Source: Lachnospiraceae bacterium (lineage in GTDB: Bacteria; Bacillota; Clostridia; Lachnospirales; Lachnospiraceae). Taken from it: a stretch of 64,000 nt of DNA. The stretch covers positions 149,973 through 213,972 of the forward strand of contig JAFUZJ010000019.1 in the NCBI GenBank assembly GCA_017476665.1, in the 5' to 3' direction. The notes under the pieces are model-generated. The model was given only the letters and a program-made list of their open reading frames with translations, was not told where the DNA came from and ran no database searches. Position 1 is the first letter of the stretch. Each line of letters starts with the position of its first letter. A program made the translations under genes and the position numbers. Below are positions 41,389 through 64,000 of the stretch, in pieces.

Positions 41389-44076
41389 TTACTTTGCCTC
41401 ATACCAGCTTGCACCGCTGTGTACATCCACTTCCAGCGTAACTTTCAGATCCGCTGCCGCTTTCATATTGTCCACCAGGATTTTCCGTACCTGCTCCACC
41501 TCATCCTCTGCGGTCTCGATCAGCAGTTCATCATGCACCTGCAGGATCAGTCTGGACTTTAATCCTGCCTGTCTGAGCGCCTCCCAGACACGGATCATGG
41601 CAATTTTGATGATATCCGCCGCCGTTCCCTGGATCGGCGAATTCATCGCCACACGCTCCCCAAAGGACCGCTGCATGAAATTCGAGGAAGCCAGTTCCGG
41701 CACCGGGCGTCTTCTGTGAAACATCGTCACGGCATAACCGGTCTCTTTGGCATCCACCACCAGCCCGTCCAGGAAGCCTTTGATCCCCGGATAGGTTGCA
41801 AAATACTGTTCAATATACTCTGACGCCTCTTTCCGGCTGATGCTCAGATCCTGGCTCAGTCCAAAGGAACTGATTCCATACACGATCCCGAAATTTACCG
41901 CCTTGGCATTGCGCCGCTGCAAACTTGTCACCTCATCCAAAGGTACATGAAATACCTTGGACGCCGTGATACGGTGGATATCCTCATCCATGCGGTACGC
42001 CTCGATCAGCTGCTCATCGCCGGACATATGCGCCAGCACACGCAGCTCAATCTGGGAATAATCCGCATCCAAGAACACATATCCCTCTTTCGGCACAAAC
42101 ACTTTTCGTAGCTGCCTGCCCAACTCCGTCCTGGTCGGAATATTCTGCAGATTCGGCTCCGTGGAACTGATGCGCCCCGTCGCCGTGATCGTCTGATTAA
42201 AATTCGTGTGGATACGCTTGTCCGCTCCGATATAAACTGCCAGCCCGTCCGCATAGGTGGACTTCAGTTTGGTGAGCGCCCGATACTCCAGAATATCCTT
42301 CACGATTGGGTATTCCTCCGCCAGCTTATCCAGCACATCTGCCGCCGTAGAATAACCGGTCTTGGTCTTTTTCCCGCCCGGCAGCTGTAATTTTTCAAAC
42401 AGGATCTCTCCCAATTGCTTGGGGGAGTTGATGTTAAATTTCTCTCCGGCCGCATCGCAGATTGCATTTTCCAGCGCGTCAATCCGGGAGATCAGTGCGT
42501 CCCCGTAGGCCTTCAGCTCCTCTCTGCGGACCTCAACGCCCTCTTTTTCCATGTCATAAAGCACAAGAGAAAGCGGCATCTCGATTTTCCGCATCAGGTC
42601 AGCCATCTGCGTCTTCTCTAATTTCTCCGCGATCACCCGGGAGGCCGCCAGCGCCACATAAGCGCCCTGTGCATAGAAATCCATCGCTTTCTGCGGCTCC
42701 TGCTCCACTACCTGGGAAAGACTCCGTTTCCCGAACACTTCCACCGTCCCCTGCACCGTCATCCCCAGGTGCTCGGAGGCAATGGTCTCAATATCGTAAT
42801 CACTTTTCAACGGGTTCAAAAGATACGCCCCAATCAGGACATCAAAATAACGCGTCGTACTGTCCTGCGCCAAAAAAGCATATTCTTTTTTCACATCAAA
42901 AGTCGCCAACCGCACATGGGCAGACAGCTCTTTCAACAAAAGCCTCACCTGCTCTGTCTCATCCACCGCTTCTTTGGGCGTGTCGAATAAAGACAGCTGT
43001 CCAACGGTCTCCTCCTGCCTTGCCAGCAGATAGACATAATTCTCCTGCGCAGATCTGCTGATTGCAATTCCCAACAGCCGATCCTGCTCCAGCATCAGCC
43101 AGAGACCGATCTCTTTCGCCTGCTTCTCCGCTTCCTTCACAAGCTTCTCAAAAGCCTTGATATCCGCTATCTTCTGCGCCGCAAGCTTCGCGCCTTCTCC
43201 CGCAGAAACCGTCCTGTCGAAACGTCCCAGGAAGTTCTTAAACTCCAGTTTTTTAAATAACACGTATGCTTCCGGCGTATAATACCCTTCCGCTTTTGCC
43301 GCCTCATAATCAAACGCCAGATCACAGTCCACTTTGATAGTCGCCAGAGTCTTGCTCAGGTAAGCCAATTCCTTATTTTCGATCAGAGAGGTCCGAATGG
43401 CATTTTTTGAAACCTCATCCACATGGGCATAAAGATTATCCAGCGAACCGTACTCCACGATCAGCCCTGTGGCCGTCTTCTCGCCCACCTTGGGTACTCC
43501 CGGGATATTGTCCGCCGTATCCCCCATCAGTGCCTTCAGGTCAATGAACTGCTCCGGCGTCATCTGATAGGCAGCCTGCACATCTGCCGCATAATAATCC
43601 TCAATCTCTGTCCCGGTGCGCTTCGTCTTCGGAATTCGGATCTTGATCCTGTCCGAAGCGATCTGCAGCAGGTCCCTATCCCCGGAGACCAGCGAAACCG
43701 CCATGCCGTCCCGCTCCGCTTTCTTCGCCAACGTCCCCAGAATATCATCCGCCTCCAGCCCAGCCTGTTCCACGATCACCACATGCATGGCCTTCAGCAC
43801 TTCCTTCATCACCGGAACCTGCTCTCTCAACTCCTCCGGCATGGGCTTACGCGTACCCTTGTAGGCGTCATACATCTGATGGCGGAAGGTCGGCGCATGC
43901 ACATCAAACGCCACCGCCAGATATTCCGGCTTCTCCTCCTCCAGGATCTTAAACATGATATTCAAAAAGCCGTAAATTGCATTGGTATGAAGCCCTTCCG
44001 CGTTGCTCAGATCAGGCAGCCCATAAAATGCTCTGTTCAGAATACTGTGTCCGTCTATTAAAACAAGTTTCTTCAT
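41389..44076 (-). CDS. polA: DNA polymerase I
   Basis: The product has 895 residues. The 5'-3' exonuclease domain (1-290) has LVLIDGHSILNRAFYG, AGLEADDILGTLA and LKALMGDTADNIPGVPKVGEKTA. The middle 3'-5' exonuclease-like domain (about 310-480) lacks the DxE metal motif, so proofreading is probably absent, as in Bacillus PolA. The polymerase domain has LDADYSQIELRVLAHMSGD (motif A), RRNAKAVNFGIVYGIS (motif B) and LQVHDELLIE (motif C). It serves in repair and Okazaki-fragment maturation. Confidence 0.98.
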   Translation of the reverse strand: MKKLVLIDGHSILNRAFYGLPDLSNAEGLHTNAIYGFLNIMFKILEEEKPEYLAVAFDVHAPTFRHQMYDAYKGTRKPMPEELREQVPVMKEVLKAMHVVIVEQAGLEADDILGTLAKKAERDGMAVSLVSGDRDLLQIASDRIKIRIPKTKRTGTEIEDYYAADVQAAYQMTPEQFIDLKALMGDTADNIPGVPKVGEKTATGLIVEYGSLDNLYAHVDEVSKNAIRTSLIENKELAYLSKTLATIKVDCDLAFDYEAAKAEGYYTPEAYVLFKKLEFKNFLGRFDRTVSAGEGAKLAAQKIADIKAFEKLVKEAEKQAKEIGLWLMLEQDRLLGIAISRSAQENYVYLLARQEETVGQLSLFDTPKEAVDETEQVRLLLKELSAHVRLATFDVKKEYAFLAQDSTTRYFDVLIGAYLLNPLKSDYDIETIASEHLGMTVQGTVEVFGKRSLSQVVEQEPQKAMDFYAQGAYVALAASRVIAEKLEKTQMADLMRKIEMPLSLVLYDMEKEGVEVRREELKAYGDALISRIDALENAICDAAGEKFNINSPKQLGEILFEKLQLPGGKKTKTGYSTAADVLDKLAEEYPIVKDILEYRALTKLKSTYADGLAVYIGADKRIHTNFNQTITATGRISSTEPNLQNIPTRTELGRQLRKVFVPKEGYVFLDADYSQIELRVLAHMSGDEQLIEAYRMDEDIHRITASKVFHVPLDEVTSLQRRNAKAVNFGIVYGISSFGLSQDLSISRKEASEYIEQYFATYPGIKGFLDGLVVDAKETGYAVTMFHRRRPVPELASSNFMQRSFGERVAMNSPIQGTAADIIKIAMIRVWEALRQAGLKSRLILQVHDELLIETAEDEVEQVRKILVDNMKAAADLKVTLEVDVHSGASWYEAK

Positions 44077-44134
44077 GCTAAACTTCCATTCCGCTGATAT
44101 TCCGCTGATTTCAAATTTCTATTCCGGTAATAAC

Positions 44135-44455
44135 TCAAAGCAGCATCCACACAATCACTCCGACAATCGTGGAAATGATGATCAGTTCCAATGCCGCCCC
44201 CAAATACAGTAACAGGGAGTGATATTTCACTCGATTCTCCGCCTCGATCCGGCGGATCTCCAACTCTCTCTGCAAGTCAAAGGCATCCCCCTCCTCCAGG
44301 TGCTGCATGCCTTCCGCCACCAGAAACTGGATTGCCAGTTCCTCATGACATTCCTTGCAGGTATCCATGTGCTCATTAAATTTTCTCAGTGTACGAAAAT
44401 CCATTTCCTGCGTCAGGAACTCAGGAATTAGTTTCTCAAATTCCGTACAATTCAT
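44135..44455 (-). CDS. Small zinc-finger (zf-HC2-like) membrane protein, anti-sigma-like
   Basis: The product has 106 residues from the ATG at 44455 (MNCTEFEKLIPEFL). The N-terminal part resembles anti-sigma zinc fingers, with HMDTCKECHEELAI giving the H-x3-C-x2-C motif. One C-terminal membrane helix follows (about 82-104). No sigma gene is adjacent; the nearest are about 4 kb away. It lies just upstream of polA with its own start. It may regulate a distant sigma factor. Confidence 0.75.
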   Translation of the reverse strand: MNCTEFEKLIPEFLTQEMDFRTLRKFNEHMDTCKECHEELAIQFLVAEGMQHLEEGDAFDLQRELEIRRIEAENRVKYHSLLLYLGAALELIIISTIVGVIVWMLL

Positions 44456-44565
44456 ACCTACACCCCGAATCACGTGTCAGAATAAAAAACGCTGCGCAGT
44501 TTCTCATAGAATATACTATACAACAATTCCAGAAAAAAATAAACATAAAAAAAGGAAAAAATGAC

Positions 44566-44594
44566 TTGCCAATAGAATTAATCTATGTTAGAAT
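44566..44594 (+). promoter_or_regulatory. Promoter of tRNA-Leu
   Basis: TTGCCA (44566-44571), a 17-base spacer, then TAGAAT (44589-44594), 33 bases before the tRNA. Confidence 0.8.
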
Positions 44595-44626
44595 ACCTTT
44601 GTTGCAAAATTTTACATTTAGCAAAC

Positions 44627-44709
44627 GCCGGCGTGTCGGAATGGCAGACGAGGCAGACTCAAAATCTGTTGTGGGCAACCACGTGCGGGTTCAAGTCCCG
44701 CTGCCGGCA
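44627..44709 (+). tRNA. tRNA-Leu (anticodon CAA)
   Basis: The acceptor arms GCCGGCG and TGCCGGC pair with one G-U pair, and A73 follows. The anticodon stem-loop GCAGA-CTCAAAA-TCTGT gives CAA, reading UUG. A long variable arm (class II) and the T-loop GGTTCAAGTCC are present. CCA is not encoded. Confidence 0.95.
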
Positions 44710-44713
44710 TCTT

Positions 44714-44740
44714 AAAAACCTTGATTTTTCAAGGTTTTTT
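44714..44740 (+). terminator. Terminator of tRNA-Leu
   Basis: AAAACCTTGA pairs with TCAAGGTTTT across a four-base loop, followed by T residues. It begins 5 bases after the tRNA. Confidence 0.85.
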
Positions 44741-44750
44741 CTTATTCACC

Positions 44751-44780
44751 TGATTACTTTTGATTACTCTTTTGATTACT
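44751..44780. repeat. Three short TGATTACT repeats downstream of tRNA-Leu
   Basis: TGATTACT occurs at 44751-44758, 44761-44768 and 44773-44780. Short direct repeats beside a tRNA 3' end are often integrase arm sites or scars of an excised element. No integrase gene is present here. Confidence 0.5.
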
Positions 44781-44850
44781 TGCAGGATACCCTTTTGGCT
44801 TTGATCGAACTACCGGCTCAACCGGCGATAAAACATGTTGCATAAAACAT

Positions 44851-44880
44851 TTGCAAATTGCTATCTTGTAATGTTACAAT
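44851..44880 (+). promoter_or_regulatory. Promoter of the candidate type I toxin mRNA
   Basis: TTGCAA (44851-44856), an 18-base spacer, then TACAAT (44875-44880). It lies 46 bases before the toxin start codon. Confidence 0.7.
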
Positions 44881-44926
44881 CTCTTTGTTACCGCCCCTAG
44901 ACTGGTACAGGAAGGGGGTGCGTCAC

Positions 44927-45013
44927 TTGGATTTAATCCTATCATTTTGGGTCACTGTTGCGGCGGGCGTGGTTTGCCACCTGGTCTGCAAATGGTTAGA
45001 CGGTGACCGCTAG
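44927..45013 (+). CDS. Candidate Fst/par-type hydrophobic toxin peptide, 28 residues
   Basis: The gene starts with TTG at 44927, 8 bases after AGGAAGGGGG; an in-frame GTG at 44918 overlaps that site and is less likely. The peptide begins MDLILSF, has one membrane helix (about residues 3-22) and ends in the charged tail KWLDGDR. The Fst/Ldr toxin family shows the same plan: a short hydrophobic helix, then a Trp-Leu-Asp-type polar tail. GGAAGGG at 44910-44916 can pair with CCCTTCC at 45039-45045, hiding the ribosome-binding site in the full-length mRNA. An antisense RNA with a good promoter converges from the right. Toxicity is inferred. Confidence 0.75.
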   Translation: MDLILSFWVTVAAGVVCHLVCKWLDGDR

Positions 45014-45064
45014 TCGGTAACTAGCCTATGGTACTAAGCCCTTCCATGACAAAAATTGGGAATA

Positions 45065-45097
45065 GAAAACCCCGGAGATTGCAGCTCCGGGGTTTTC
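45065..45097. terminator. Shared bidirectional terminator of toxin and antitoxin RNAs
   Basis: A perfect 13-base stem, GAAAACCCCGGAG (45065-45077) with CTCCGGGGTTTTC (45085-45097), encloses a 7-base loop. It ends in TTTTC in either direction, so it can stop both convergent transcripts. Confidence 0.88.
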
Positions 45098-45140
45098 GTT
45101 CGGTCGCTTCACTTGGAAACATCCTATCATTTTTTTGCCT
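45065..45140 (-). ncRNA. Candidate antitoxin RNA (RNA II-like)
   Basis: The predicted leftward RNA is about 75 nt, from near 45140 to the shared terminator. Its 5' part is complementary to the toxin mRNA start region in two blocks: AAAATGATAGGAT with the mRNA positions 44936-44948, and TCCAAGTGA with 44923-44931. It also carries the shared hairpin, which could form the first loop-loop contact with the toxin mRNA. It has no open reading frame of note. Confidence 0.78.
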
Positions 45141-45146
45141 ACTGGC

Positions 45147-45175
45147 ATTATAGCATATACAAATCTGGTTTACAA
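45147..45175 (-). promoter_or_regulatory. Promoter of the candidate antitoxin RNA
   Basis: On the minus strand TTGTAA (45170-45175), a 17-base spacer, then a perfect TATAAT (45147-45152). Confidence 0.85.
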
Positions 45176-45240
45176 TATACTTTTTTCGAATTTTTTATCA
45201 TCATACAAGTTGATTTTATATGTTTTTATCTTGTCTTTTT

Positions 45241-45390
45241 CTGACAGATAAACTATACTACCATTGGTACCAGTTCTGGGAGGAGTACGATTCCATCGTA
45301 TCGCCGGTGTCTCGGTTCACACATGGAAGATCCCGGAGGAACACTCGGCGGCTGGTGCCATTTTATTTCAATGCATGGTTCCGGTAGCTC
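45241..45390 (+). pseudogene. Possible coding remnant
   Basis: One plus-strand frame is open for about 50 codons before TAG and has a protein-like composition, with Trp/Tyr-rich WYQFWEEYD followed by Arg-rich GRSRRNTRR. No start codon or ribosome-binding site is seen. Its end overlaps the 3' end of the ABC permease gene on the other strand. It could be the tail of a lost mobile-element gene, or chance. Confidence 0.3.
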
Positions 45391-46607
45391 CGGATCGTCA
45401 GCCCAATCCAAAGCGGTATTTCCACCACTGCAAATGCCATGATCAGAAACGGGGTCCAGATCGCAAGCTCCCCTATATTCAGATAGCGCATCTCCAACAG
45501 GTCATACAAAAAACCATTCTGCAGCCCGATCCCGCCTGCGGGGAACACACATTTCACAAGATTCACAATATGATCCGGTATGAGCCACCCCAGAACCACA
45601 GGCAGAAAACAGACCAAAAGCGCGGTGGCCATCGCCAGCATATTATTGGAAAACCGAGAGGACAAAAACAAGGTAAGGCAAACACCCGATAACAGCATGA
45701 TCACACTGCACAATGCTTCTGACCAGATCAGACCGCCCACGTTCAGATCAACCAGGCTGATCACAGAAAACACCATCTGCACTGAAGTCTGCATACCTTC
45801 CTGTCCCCAAAAGACTGTCGTGGCCAATATCCAAATTCCCATACCGATCACCGTTACAACCAGGCAGATCATAAGCGCCGACACTATCTTCACCACTGCC
45901 AGTTTTCTCCTGCCGCTTTTGGTACATCTCAAAATATCATCCGCCCCTGTCTGGTATTCGCTTGAAAATACCGGTGCACATACCACCGTACAACATAGAA
46001 AAAGGACAAGCACCAGCAATCCCTCATATTCTATCGCATCGGCGCTCACCCCATAGGCATACCAAAAAGGCATATCCACTTTGCCGTACAGTGCTTCTGC
46101 GTTCCGTCCCGCAGCGGGATGCTCTTTTTGTTCCAGTCGCATAATGTCCGTCAAATGCTTTCTGCAGGCTGCATAAAAATCTCCCAAATTCCCTGCTTCC
46201 AGATCCATAATATCCGCCGCAATCCCCCCCTCAGTCGCATAGGCCTCTCTGATCCCGTGAAACAAATATTTTACCGGATCCAGTTCTCTCTTTGCTGTAT
46301 CCGACAATTCATAGGTGTAGTCCACACCATATCGCTTCAGGCAATCCTGATAACAGGCAACCGCGTACACAATCTTTTCCTGTGTGATTTCTCCGCTGAT
46401 TCCCTGTGTGATCTGCTTCTCGGCGCGGATCGCCTCAAAGCCGGTCAGATATTCCTTATCTCCTATCACCACCTGCGGATTTCTGCAATAGACAAAAGTA
46501 ACCGGAATGTATGCCAGCAGAAAAGAGAAAAACAGCGCTGCACCCAAAACAATCCTTGTCATCCGGCTCATCAGAACACGCTTTATTTCCAATCCCAATA
46601 GTCTCAT
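45363..46607 (-). CDS. ABC-2-type transporter permease
   Basis: The product has 414 residues from the ATG at 46607 (MRLLGLEIKRVLM), which overlaps the ATPase stop by 4 bases. TM1 (about 20-40) is followed by an extracytoplasmic loop of about 170 residues. Five more helices fill 215-400, the ABC-2 export plan. VFSSEYQTGADDILRCTKSGRRKL is the cytoplasmic coupling segment, typical of bacitracin/lantibiotic-type exporters. The large outer loop may bind a peptide. It forms a transporter with the upstream ATPase. The substrate is unknown. Confidence 0.85.
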   Translation of the reverse strand: MRLLGLEIKRVLMSRMTRIVLGAALFFSFLLAYIPVTFVYCRNPQVVIGDKEYLTGFEAIRAEKQITQGISGEITQEKIVYAVACYQDCLKRYGVDYTYELSDTAKRELDPVKYLFHGIREAYATEGGIAADIMDLEAGNLGDFYAACRKHLTDIMRLEQKEHPAAGRNAEALYGKVDMPFWYAYGVSADAIEYEGLLVLVLFLCCTVVCAPVFSSEYQTGADDILRCTKSGRRKLAVVKIVSALMICLVVTVIGMGIWILATTVFWGQEGMQTSVQMVFSVISLVDLNVGGLIWSEALCSVIMLLSGVCLTLFLSSRFSNNMLAMATALLVCFLPVVLGWLIPDHIVNLVKCVFPAGGIGLQNGFLYDLLEMRYLNIGELAIWTPFLIMAFAVVEIPLWIGLTIRSYRNHALK

Positions 46608-47485
46608 TCTTCTCCCCCCTCCTTTGCGCCAAACAACCACAGATACAAATCCTCCAGGTGTGGCTCTGCCTCTTTGGACCCTGCAATCACAGCCCGTTCT
46701 CCAAGATACCGGATCTGCGTTTCTTCTGCACCCTCATTTTTCAGATTAACAATTTTCAGACCCTGTTCATACCTTGCCAGTGTTTCGTTGTCCACTGTAC
46801 TCTGCCATACCTTTCCGTCCATTTTCCGAACCAGTTCCTCCGTCGTCCCCGATAGAACAATCTTTCCGTCCCGCATGATAGCCTGTTTCGCCGCAATATA
46901 TTCCACATCCGGTACGATATGGGTCGAGATCAGTACAATCCTGCCCTTTGAAAATTCAGCCAACAGGCGCCGCAGTCTGATCCGCTCTCCCGGGTCCAAA
47001 CCTGACGTAGGTTCATCTAAAATCAAGATTTCCGGATCGTTCAACAGAGCCTGTGAAATTCCCACCCTTCGCTTCATACCGCCGGACAGCTTCCTGATTT
47101 TTTTATTTATTACCTCCGTCAGGGTCATCTGTTCCAACAATTCTTCTATTTTTTCTCTCGTATGAGTTTTGGTCAATCCCTTTAAGGCTGCCACATACTC
47201 CAAATAGTCCTTCACCGTAAATTCGGGATAAAAACCGAATTCCTGCGGCAAATACCCAAACAGGTTCCGGTATTCCGCATCCAGTGTCGCTATGGGAATC
47301 CCGTCATATAGGATTTCTCCCGCTGTAGGTTTCAGGATATCTGCGATCATCCTTATCAGCGTCGTCTTTCCCGCGCCGTTAGCCCCAAGCAGTCCCCAGA
47401 TTCCCGGGGTGAGTGTCAAAGACACATCATTCACTGCCGTTTTGTCTGCATATTTTTTGGAAACATGCTCTACTCTCAGTTCCAT
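46604..47485 (-). CDS. ABC transporter ATP-binding protein
   Basis: The product has 293 residues from the ATG at 47485 with GGAGG upstream; the longer open frame does not look like coding sequence. Walker A is GLLGANGAGKTTLIRM (about 33-48), the Q loop is GYLPQEFGFYPEFTV, the signature is RKLSGGMKRRVGISQALL, Walker B is ILILDEPTSGLD, and the H loop is ISTHIV. The C-terminal 80 residues form a regulatory or contact domain. It is coupled to the permease by an ATGA overlap. It is probably in one operon with the sigma factor upstream. Confidence 0.95.
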   Translation of the reverse strand: MELRVEHVSKKYADKTAVNDVSLTLTPGIWGLLGANGAGKTTLIRMIADILKPTAGEILYDGIPIATLDAEYRNLFGYLPQEFGFYPEFTVKDYLEYVAALKGLTKTHTREKIEELLEQMTLTEVINKKIRKLSGGMKRRVGISQALLNDPEILILDEPTSGLDPGERIRLRRLLAEFSKGRIVLISTHIVPDVEYIAAKQAIMRDGKIVLSGTTEELVRKMDGKVWQSTVDNETLARYEQGLKIVNLKNEGAEETQIRYLGERAVIAGSKEAEPHLEDLYLWLFGAKEGGEE

Positions 47486-47517
47486 TCTCTTTCCTCCATT
47501 CTGAATAATGATCCGTT

Positions 47518-63684: not shown

Positions 63685-64000
63685 ATTGGATAAGCTCTGG
63701 ACCGATTAGTAAATGTCAGCTCCATGCATTACTGCACTTCCACCTCATTCCTATCTACCTCATACTCTCTAAGGGGTCTTAAAAGTTTCCCTTGCGGGAA
63801 CTTTGGATATCTCATCTTGAGGGGGGCTTCACGCTTAGATGCCTTCAGCGTTTATCCCTGCCGGACTTGGCTACTCTGCCATGGATCTGATACCCAACAG
63901 ATACACCAGTGGTCCGTCCATCCCGGTCATCTCGTACTAAGGACAGCTCCTCTCAAATATCCTCCGCCTGCGCCGGATAGGGACCGAACTGTCGCACGAC
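63685..64000 (-). rRNA. 23S ribosomal RNA, 3' part (5' side beyond the window)
   Basis: The minus strand reads the domain VI end of 23S rRNA. The sarcin-ricin loop region lies near 63925-63938, followed by GGGATAAACGCTGAAGGCATCTAAGCGTGAAGCC in parts, and the last helix near CTAATCGGTCCAGAGCTTATCC. The 3' end is estimated from that terminal helix. Two bases differ from near-universal 23S positions (63929 and 63994). Confidence 0.95.

What the first reader, a model, noticed from the sequence alone, without database searches (positions are those of the whole stretch)
44851..45175. Compact par/Fst-like type I toxin-antitoxin locus beside tRNA-Leu
Seen in sequence: a 28-codon hydrophobic peptide gene with its own promoter faces an oppositely directed promoter (perfect TATAAT, 17-base spacer). 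Both transcripts end at one 13-bp stem terminator. Two pairs of direct repeats (9 and 13 bases) place sequence complementary to the toxin start region inside the short leftward RNA. Known from the enterococcal pAD1 par locus: convergent RNA I/RNA II, shared terminator, and DRa/DRb repeats used for antisense pairing. Inferred: the peptide is toxic and the about 75-nt RNA is its antitoxin. The peptide sequence differs from described Fst toxins, so this may be a new branch.
Basis: partly seen in the sequence, partly recalled or inferred. Interest (0 to 1): 0.88.

Follow-up and report, generated by a model that had tools for sequence, protein, structure and literature searches.

The report
Par-type toxin–antisense RNA addiction module
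A gut bacterium carries, beside a tRNA gene, a tiny membrane-peptide gene paired with a short antisense RNA that looks built to silence it, one of a large group of such modules on the chromosomes, plasmids and phages of gut bacteria.

Summary
A 28-codon TTG-started peptide (44927-45013, +) faces an opposite promoter. A perfect 13-bp stem (45065-45097) lies between them, and two direct repeats copy the toxin's start region into the predicted antisense RNA.

In 159 non-redundant homologous loci the repeat letters differ from locus to locus, yet each locus tends to match itself: 140 of 159 exceed the 99th percentile of mismatched pairings, against 0 of 159 in a same-locus control. The antisense promoter is conserved too.

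Best reading: a par/Fst-type type I toxin-antitoxin locus. No member of the CKWLD toxin clade scored so far passes the NCBIfam Fst cut-off, though one aligns over the model's full length. Relatives reach Enterococcus and Streptococcus plasmids. A profile finds the clade in 131 of 397 genomes of the window's family; three filamentous phages carry it. In the window it is most simply an acquired insertion: 0 of 29 other genus members read have it there.

Both RNAs and toxicity are inferred, not shown. Verdict: a new member of a known kind, in a broad clade that I did not find described.

The parts
44851..44880 (+). toxin (RNA I) promoter, TTGCAA-18-TACAAT, TGn before the -10
   Evidence: a -10 box (4 of 6 or better) 25-55 nt before the start in 144 of 159 non-redundant homologues, 114 with TGn
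44887..45097 (+). predicted RNA I (toxin mRNA), about 211-216 nt
   Evidence: start inferred 7 nt after the -10; fold -84.4 kcal/mol, z -3.2
44887..44893 (+). GTTACCG, complementary to CGGTAAC 45015-45021 (possible upstream helix)
   Evidence: 26 of 33 homologues with a GTTACC end have a match of 6 or more there; but pairing probability in the window fold is about 0.001
44892..44897 (+). CGCCCC, can pair with GGGGTG 44915-44920 in the ribosome-binding site
   Evidence: pairing probability about 0.64; the minimum-energy fold pairs the site with 45032-45043 instead
44912..44920 (+). ribosome-binding site AAGGGGGTG
   Evidence: sequence
44927..45013 (+). 28-aa hydrophobic toxin-like peptide, TTG start, TAG stop
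   Evidence: profile matches in 131 of 397 family genomes
44920..44931 (+). direct repeat 1, copy in RNA I (overlaps the start codon)
44936..44948 (+). direct repeat 2, copy in RNA I
45015..45021 (+). CGGTAAC, complement of the RNA I 5' end
45065..45097 (.). stem taken as bidirectional terminator of both RNAs (13 bp, 7-nt loop)
   Evidence: mean stem score 33.4 in 159 homologues against 16.8 in 150 control stretches
45106..45117 (-). direct repeat 1, copy inside the antisense RNA
45121..45133 (-). direct repeat 2, copy inside the antisense RNA
45061..45140 (-). predicted RNA II (antitoxin), about 75-80 nt
   Evidence: promoter plus stem; fold -29.0 kcal/mol, z -3.9; its first 45 nt pair with the RNA I leader and ORF at -43.4 kcal/mol
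45147..45175 (-). antitoxin (RNA II) promoter, TTGTAA-17-TATAAT, TGn
   Evidence: TGn-extended -10 in 134 of 159 homologues, 108 exact TATAAT
44627..44709 (+). tRNA-Leu(caa) beside the module

Best explanation
A par/Fst-type type I toxin-antitoxin locus. RNA I encodes a 28-residue single-helix membrane toxin whose ribosome-binding site is paired away within the RNA. RNA II, made from the opposite promoter, carries complements of the toxin start region (direct repeats) and of the shared terminator loop; it should dock on the terminator, then zip onto the start codon region and block translation. If the DNA is lost or RNA II falls, RNA I is translated and growth stops. Shown here: the anatomy, and conservation with locus-specific repeats. 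Inferred: both transcripts, the order of pairing, RNA stabilities, toxicity. In this genome the module is most simply an acquired insertion next to tRNA-Leu, so its likeliest role (inferred) is that of a selfish or stabilising module brought in by mobile DNA.
For: Anatomy. Own-versus-other repeat test: mean 18.0 own, 8.3 mismatched; 140 of 159 above the 99th percentile; 127 of 159 match their own region best; same-locus control 0 of 159. Duplex energy -38.7 own against -20.3 mismatched; 125 of 159 beyond the 1st percentile. Neighbouring copies: 33 of 33 match themselves better than their neighbour (the list holds at least one array twice). In the close relative L062 all 3 changes in the antisense repeat copies are matched in the toxin copies, and the stem has one paired change. 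Antisense promoter score 8.2 against 4.3 in control stretches. 14 of 14 plasmid/phage loci read, of 32 hits, have a stem and repeats, and 5 of 5 further Bacilli plasmid loci; no control was run for those two counts. W between hydrophobic helix and charged tail, and a TxxxG motif, as described in PMC7472228. One member aligns over the full Fst model, 22.6 bits, E 7e-5.
Against: No expression or toxicity data. The window peptide gives no Pfam or NCBIfam hit. The proline of PxxxG, essential in Fst and Lpt (PMC7472228), is absent. 19 of 159 homologous loci do not pass the repeat threshold: 14 borderline (11.5-14), 5 clearly without (L003, L020, L100, L174, L222). Only 45 of 159 stems exceed the control's 99th percentile. 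The stem has only TTTT at its ends. The predicted fold of the window RNA I does not form the upstream helix (probability about 0.001). The 159 loci are thinned but not phylogenetically independent.
Confidence: 0.88

Rival explanations
1. An antisense-controlled small membrane peptide that is not a toxin but a regulator of some membrane protein; the layout is par-like, the output is not growth arrest.
For: The peptide lacks the PxxxG proline needed in Fst and Lpt; no toxicity data here; the role of chromosomal par loci is described as obscure (PMC7472228).
Against: The same module sits on small plasmids, a plasmid with a relaxase gene and filamentous phages, where addiction is the usual pay-off; it is absent beside the same neighbour gene in 29 of 29 other genus members read, unlike a housekeeping regulator.
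Confidence: 0.08
2. A silent remnant of a lost mobile element: sequence intact but no longer expressed.
For: Single copy in this genome (the only other match, E 0.8, lies in a 230-aa frame); not found at this site in 29 other genus members read. I ran no family search on the neighbouring genes, so a mobility gene nearby is not excluded.
Against: Both promoters, ribosome-binding site, frame, stem and both repeats are intact; a drifting locus would hardly keep a 13-of-13 repeat 185 bases apart.
Confidence: 0.06
3. Chance ORF beside a convergent stem and promoter.
For: Short ORFs are common: 71 of 20 aa or more overlap 42500-47500.
Against: Protein homologues in other genomes of the genus from 4.4e-10, with own-matched repeats.
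Confidence: 0.01

Closest known systems
par locus of Enterococcus faecalis plasmid pAD1 (RNA I/Fst, RNA II)
   Same: Convergent promoters, shared stem between them, direct repeats over the toxin start, a ribosome-binding site that can be hidden, about 30-residue membrane peptide (compared with PMC7472228, introduction and sections 2 and 4).
   Different: Peptide has W and a TxxxG motif instead of V and PxxxG; chromosomal, beside tRNA-Leu; TTG start; no model hit to Fst; the upstream helix is present as complementarity only.
Lpt RNA I/RNA II of Lactobacillus rhamnosus plasmids
   Same: Same layout, with a repeat over the start codon (PMC5608710, passages).
   Different: Lpt needs its proline (PMC7472228); this peptide has none.
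Fst-like sequences of Clostridium bolteae and C. asparagiforme
   Same: Clostridial hosts with Fst-like peptides, from an in-silico search cited by PMC6563280 (passages).
   Different: Sequences could not be compared: the paper I took for the original (10.1093/nar/gkq054, id recalled) is not held.
C. difficile type I toxins (NF047374)
   Same: Convergent, overlapping toxin/antitoxin genes and a membrane helix (PMC6563280, passages); 13 of 27 members of A1 touch the model, best E 0.0019.
   Different: 51-position model with a 60-bit cut-off; where positions were printed, matches cover part of it at 13-25 bits.

Membership tests
par/Fst type I toxin-antitoxin loci | tryptophan between a hydrophobic helix and a charged C-terminus | tested here: met
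   ...CHLVCK-W-LDGDR; W in 27 of 27 rows of A1, rows chosen by similarity
par/Fst type I toxin-antitoxin loci | P/D/S/TxxxG motif inside the helix (PMC7472228) | tested here: met
   T-VAA-G in the window; relatives vary: S/A/T xxx G/S/N/D, so not all would pass
par/Fst type I toxin-antitoxin loci | convergent promoters | tested here: met
   (sequence only)
par/Fst type I toxin-antitoxin loci | shared bidirectional intrinsic terminator | tested here: met
   13-bp stem between the two genes, conserved as a class (33.4 against 16.8, 45 of 159 over the control's 99th percentile); the scan tool did not list it; termination itself not shown
par/Fst type I toxin-antitoxin loci | direct repeats giving complementarity over the toxin start | tested here: met
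par/Fst type I toxin-antitoxin loci | 5' upstream helix closing the RNA I 5' end | tested here: inconclusive
   complementarity GTTACCG/CGGTAAC and 26 of 33 in the same 5'-end class, but neither the minimum-energy nor the centroid fold of the window has it and its probability is about 0.001
par/Fst type I toxin-antitoxin loci | 5' stem-loop hiding the ribosome-binding site | tested here: inconclusive
   probability about 0.64 in the window; the minimum-energy fold hides the site with 45032-45043 instead; family-wide, helices of 5 or more: 93% observed, 81% shuffled, nothing in 15 representatives
par/Fst type I toxin-antitoxin loci | both RNAs made, peptide toxic, RNA II protects | not testable with these tools
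   needs RNA-seq and expression
NCBIfam NF033608 / Pfam PF13955 (Fst toxin models) | score over the curated cut-off | tested here: not met
   window: no hit. NF033608: the three A1 members that match score 11.4, 17.1 and 22.6 bits, 14 other relatives at most 23.8, cut-off 26; 0 of 100 family genomes over it, 1 of 14 control genomes over it. PF13955: 3 of 27 members touched, best E 0.029, 0 of 10 relatives, 0 of 31 genomes over the cut-off, but also 0 of 14 controls, so that zero tells little

The most novel reading that the evidence does not exclude
The CKWLD toxins form a very large, overlooked par clade that is the common type I addiction module of Lachnospiraceae and their plasmids, prophages and even filamentous phages. 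Its repeats diversify by matched change in both copies, giving mutually non-interfering antitoxins, also between adjacent copies. Its toxin mRNA keeps the 5' end closed in two alternative ways: GTTACC-type ends with the segment after the stop codon, GTTGTC-type ends locally just before the ribosome-binding site. Some relatives start translation at ATA or ACG as an extra brake. (Probability lowered from 0.55, which does not form the upstream helix in the window's own fold.)
Probability: 0.5. Interest if true: 0.62.

Novelty: new member of a known kind. Interest (0 to 1): 0.47.

Why it matters
Modules with toxins under about 35 residues are easily missed by annotation (inference): no gene is listed under any of the 24 plasmid matches (the gene table there is incomplete), and the curated Fst model passes its cut-off in 0 of 100 family genomes, while a profile of this clade finds it in 131 of 397. 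A family with more than a hundred naturally matched repeat pairs, some side by side in one genome, makes antitoxin specificity, concerted change of the repeats and the obscure role of chromosomal par loci directly testable. Carriage by filamentous phages hints at an addiction role for small phages of gut bacteria.

Tried and rejected
Looked for a second copy of the tRNA-Leu 3' end in the window as an attachment site: only the tRNA itself. Searched the PDB with profile A1: 0 matches. Searched Rfam at gathering scores: only tRNA and rRNA. A leader pseudoknot (loop with ribosome-binding site, crossing the 5' helix) was considered: above permutation on all 140 leaders (z 4.9 and 6.7) but not on 15 diverged representatives (274 and 390 of 2000 permutations as good), so not claimed. 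RNAalifold on 144 leaders gave no consensus structure. tRNA association as a family trait: a tRNA within 1 kb in only 10 of 159, so not a trait. Short inverted repeats I3 and I6 around the locus could be element ends, but 10-base pairs in 700 bases are near what chance gives (own estimate); dropped. Structure prediction was not used: a single short helix would tell little.

Literature searches for this clade: (0 papers hold 'KWLD', Fst and toxin together). For filamentous-phage carriage. Only open-licence papers are held.

Full report
What is there. Just after tRNA-Leu(caa) 44627-44709 the window holds a 28-codon gene, 44927-45013, starting with TTG, behind a promoter TTGCAA-18-TACAAT and a ribosome-binding site AAGGGGGTG. 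An opposite promoter TTGTAA-17-TATAAT lies at 45175-45147 (four promoter-like sites in the stretch against 1.6 in shuffles). Between them is a perfect 13-bp stem, 45065-45097. The stretch beyond the stem repeats the toxin start region twice: 44920-44931 as 45106-45117 (11 of 12) and 44936-44948 as 45121-45133 (13 of 13), in the same order. Read leftward, these copies are antisense to the start codon region. The predicted RNA II (80 nt) folds at -29.0 kcal/mol, z -3.9; RNA I at -84.4, z -3.2. RNA II's first 45 nt pair with the RNA I leader and ORF at -43.4 kcal/mol; in the like-for-like comparison the window scores -42.1 with its own RNA II and at best -36.6 with any other.

Relatives. In the genus 63 of 138 genomes match the peptide at E <= 1, 45 of 138 at E <= 0.001 by my count of the list. 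With profile A1, 131 of 397 genomes of the family match at E <= 0.01 (11 of the 131 are weaker than 0.001), 40 of 246 of the order, 17 of 291 of the class and 9 of 299 of the phylum at E <= 0.001 (the samples share some genomes). IMG/VR gave 63 loci.

Test of the repeats. From 228 loci (window included) I took every peptide copy with full flanks (240) and thinned to 159 with at most 15% shared 12-mers. The toxin start region of each was scored against its own downstream region and against those of all others. Own mean 18.0, other mean 8.3. 140 of 159 exceed the 99th percentile of mismatched pairs, 127 of 159 have their own region as best of all, and 0 of 159 exceed it for a control stretch of the same ORF. 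The window scores 19.0 with itself and at most 14.0 with any other. Exact matches of 11 or more: 65% own, 0.7% mismatched. In 16 loci with two or three copies nearby, 33 of 33 copies match their own antisense region better than the neighbour's (L010 and L172 are the same contig and L073/L077 look alike, so the true number is smaller). The close relative L062 (peptide differs at three residues; it was thinned out of the 159) has three changes in its antisense repeat copies, all three matched in the toxin copies. Its toxin copies carry four further changes: one makes the two copies agree, two leave a G-U pair, one a mismatch. The stem has one paired change. This is the pattern expected of RNA pairing under selection; the loci are related, so the counts are not independent events.

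Against. 19 of 159 do not pass the threshold: 14 score 11.5-14 and are borderline; L003, L020, L100, L174 and L222 score 6.5-10. Of these L020 and L100 have no start or ribosome-binding site, and L003 only a weak stem. They may be decayed or divergent; I did not prove it.

Promoters and terminator. A leftward TGn-extended -10 box lies in 134 of 159 loci (108 exact TATAAT); of 132 with a good hexamer 111 have it 35-49 nt beyond the stem; mean score 8.2 against 4.3 in 149 control stretches. A toxin -10 box lies in 144 of 159. Mean stem score is 33.4 against 16.8 in 150 control stretches, though only 45 of 159 exceed the control's 99th percentile.

The leader. The first nucleotides of the inferred RNA I, GTTACCG, are complementary to CGGTAAC just after the stop codon, as in the upstream helix of par. 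Of 140 leaders, 33 have a GTTACC end and 26 of these have a match of 6 or more after the stop (median gap from stop to stem 45 nt). 44 have GTTGTC; 3 of these match there, but 42 can form a helix of 6 or more (G-U allowed; 44% of mismatched pairs can too) with a segment right before the ribosome-binding site; median gap 8 nt. The two are anti-correlated (Fisher p 0.0008, not corrected for relatedness). On diverged representatives the local pairing (15; 5-7 of 2000 permutations as good) and the post-stop pairing (10; 0 of 2000) hold up. The other 63 leaders have other ends. Against it: in the window's own fold the post-stop helix has a probability of about 0.001. So the two-leader reading is a lead only. 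The helix hiding the ribosome-binding site has a probability of about 0.64 in the window, and the minimum-energy fold hides the site with 45032-45043 instead; family-wide it is not supported beyond composition.

Where it lives. tblastn with the window peptide at E <= 10 gave 24 plasmid and 8 phage records. I read 14 of these 32, and 14 of 14 have a stem and a repeat of 9-16 bases (weakest stems 23.0 in L. salivarius and the satellite phage, shortest repeat 9 in E. hirae; no control run). They are plasmids of Waltera, M. gnavus, Amedibacterium, Mogibacterium, S. suis, E. hirae, L. salivarius, Lactococcus and two uncultured hosts, three Inoviridae (bajarodino viruses 15, 29, 68) and a Streptococcus satellite phage whose toxin ORF lies within a gene called hypothetical protein. 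Of 50 IMG/VR contigs examined, 1 has a Zot gene (L107, with an integrase, perhaps a further filamentous prophage), and 20 have a phage integrase match, 18 over the cut-off.

At the window's own site, the neighbouring 112-aa gene is found in 124 of 138 genus genomes. I read the 30 best: only the window's own has the module. 7 of the other 29 show tRNA-Leu on the same strand, 4 on the other strand, 18 none within the stretch. The module is most simply a gain here, though loss elsewhere is not excluded.

Family. The superfamily signature (W between helix and charged tail, P/D/S/TxxxG motif) and the par layout are taken from PMC7472228 (introduction and sections 2 and 4 read). The window meets the sequence signature and the promoter, stem and repeat layout. 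It does not meet the Fst models: no hit. Three members of A1 match NF033608 at 11.4, 17.1 and 22.6 bits, the last over the full model, and 14 other relatives reach at most 23.8 (an Aerococcus plasmid peptide); the cut-off is 26. A bridge exists: an L. salivarius member matches 482 plasmid records at E <= 10, 417 of Enterococcus (the Enterococcus rows listed have E about 0.01-0.02), and the five further Bacilli plasmid loci read have a stem and repeats. I therefore call it par-type in mechanism, and a divergent member of the Fst superfamily by signature and layout, not by model score.

Print. Searches show the family as known in Firmicutes and one mention of Fst-like sequences in C. bolteae and C. 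asparagiforme (PMC6563280, passages). In these searches of an open-licence library I saw no paper on this clade in Lachnospiraceae or in filamentous phages. PMC5608710, PMC8309996 and PMC11318856 were seen as passages, all others in search listings only.

Noticed in passing
L234, L238, L239 (bajarodino viruses 15, 29, 68); L107: Filamentous phages (Inoviridae) from rodent faeces carry par-type loci with stem and repeats, unannotated or overlapped by gene calls on the other strand; an IMG/VR contig with Zot and an integrase (L107) holds a relative too.
   Followed up: partly
L006, L176, L082, L124, L142 (ACG); L076, L021, L117, L115, L163, L189, L113, L214 (ATA): 13 of 159 homologues have ACG or ATA about where the start codon is expected behind a ribosome-binding site: possible near-cognate starts as a brake on toxin translation. 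Others use ATG 89, TTG 26, GTG 20.
   Followed up: partly
leaders of 140 homologous loci: Two leader classes: GTTACC ends match the segment after the stop codon, GTTGTC ends a segment before the ribosome-binding site, with stop-to-stem gaps of about 45 and 8 nt.
   Followed up: partly
plasmid records: 482 plasmid records, 417 of Enterococcus, match an L. salivarius member of this clade at E <= 10; none of the 60 rows listed has an annotated feature under the match (the gene table is incomplete).
   Followed up: partly
phrog_738 and phrog_9421: PHROG families of unknown function weakly match clade members (16 and 10 of 27 members of A1, best E 3.1e-6 and 0.0053); they may hold par-type toxins.
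   Followed up: no
44736-44779: Imperfect 22-base direct repeats with GATTAC between the tRNA-Leu terminator and the module, perhaps a scar of an integrated element.
   Followed up: no
63686-64000: 3' end of a 23S rRNA gene on the minus strand at the window edge.
   Followed up: no
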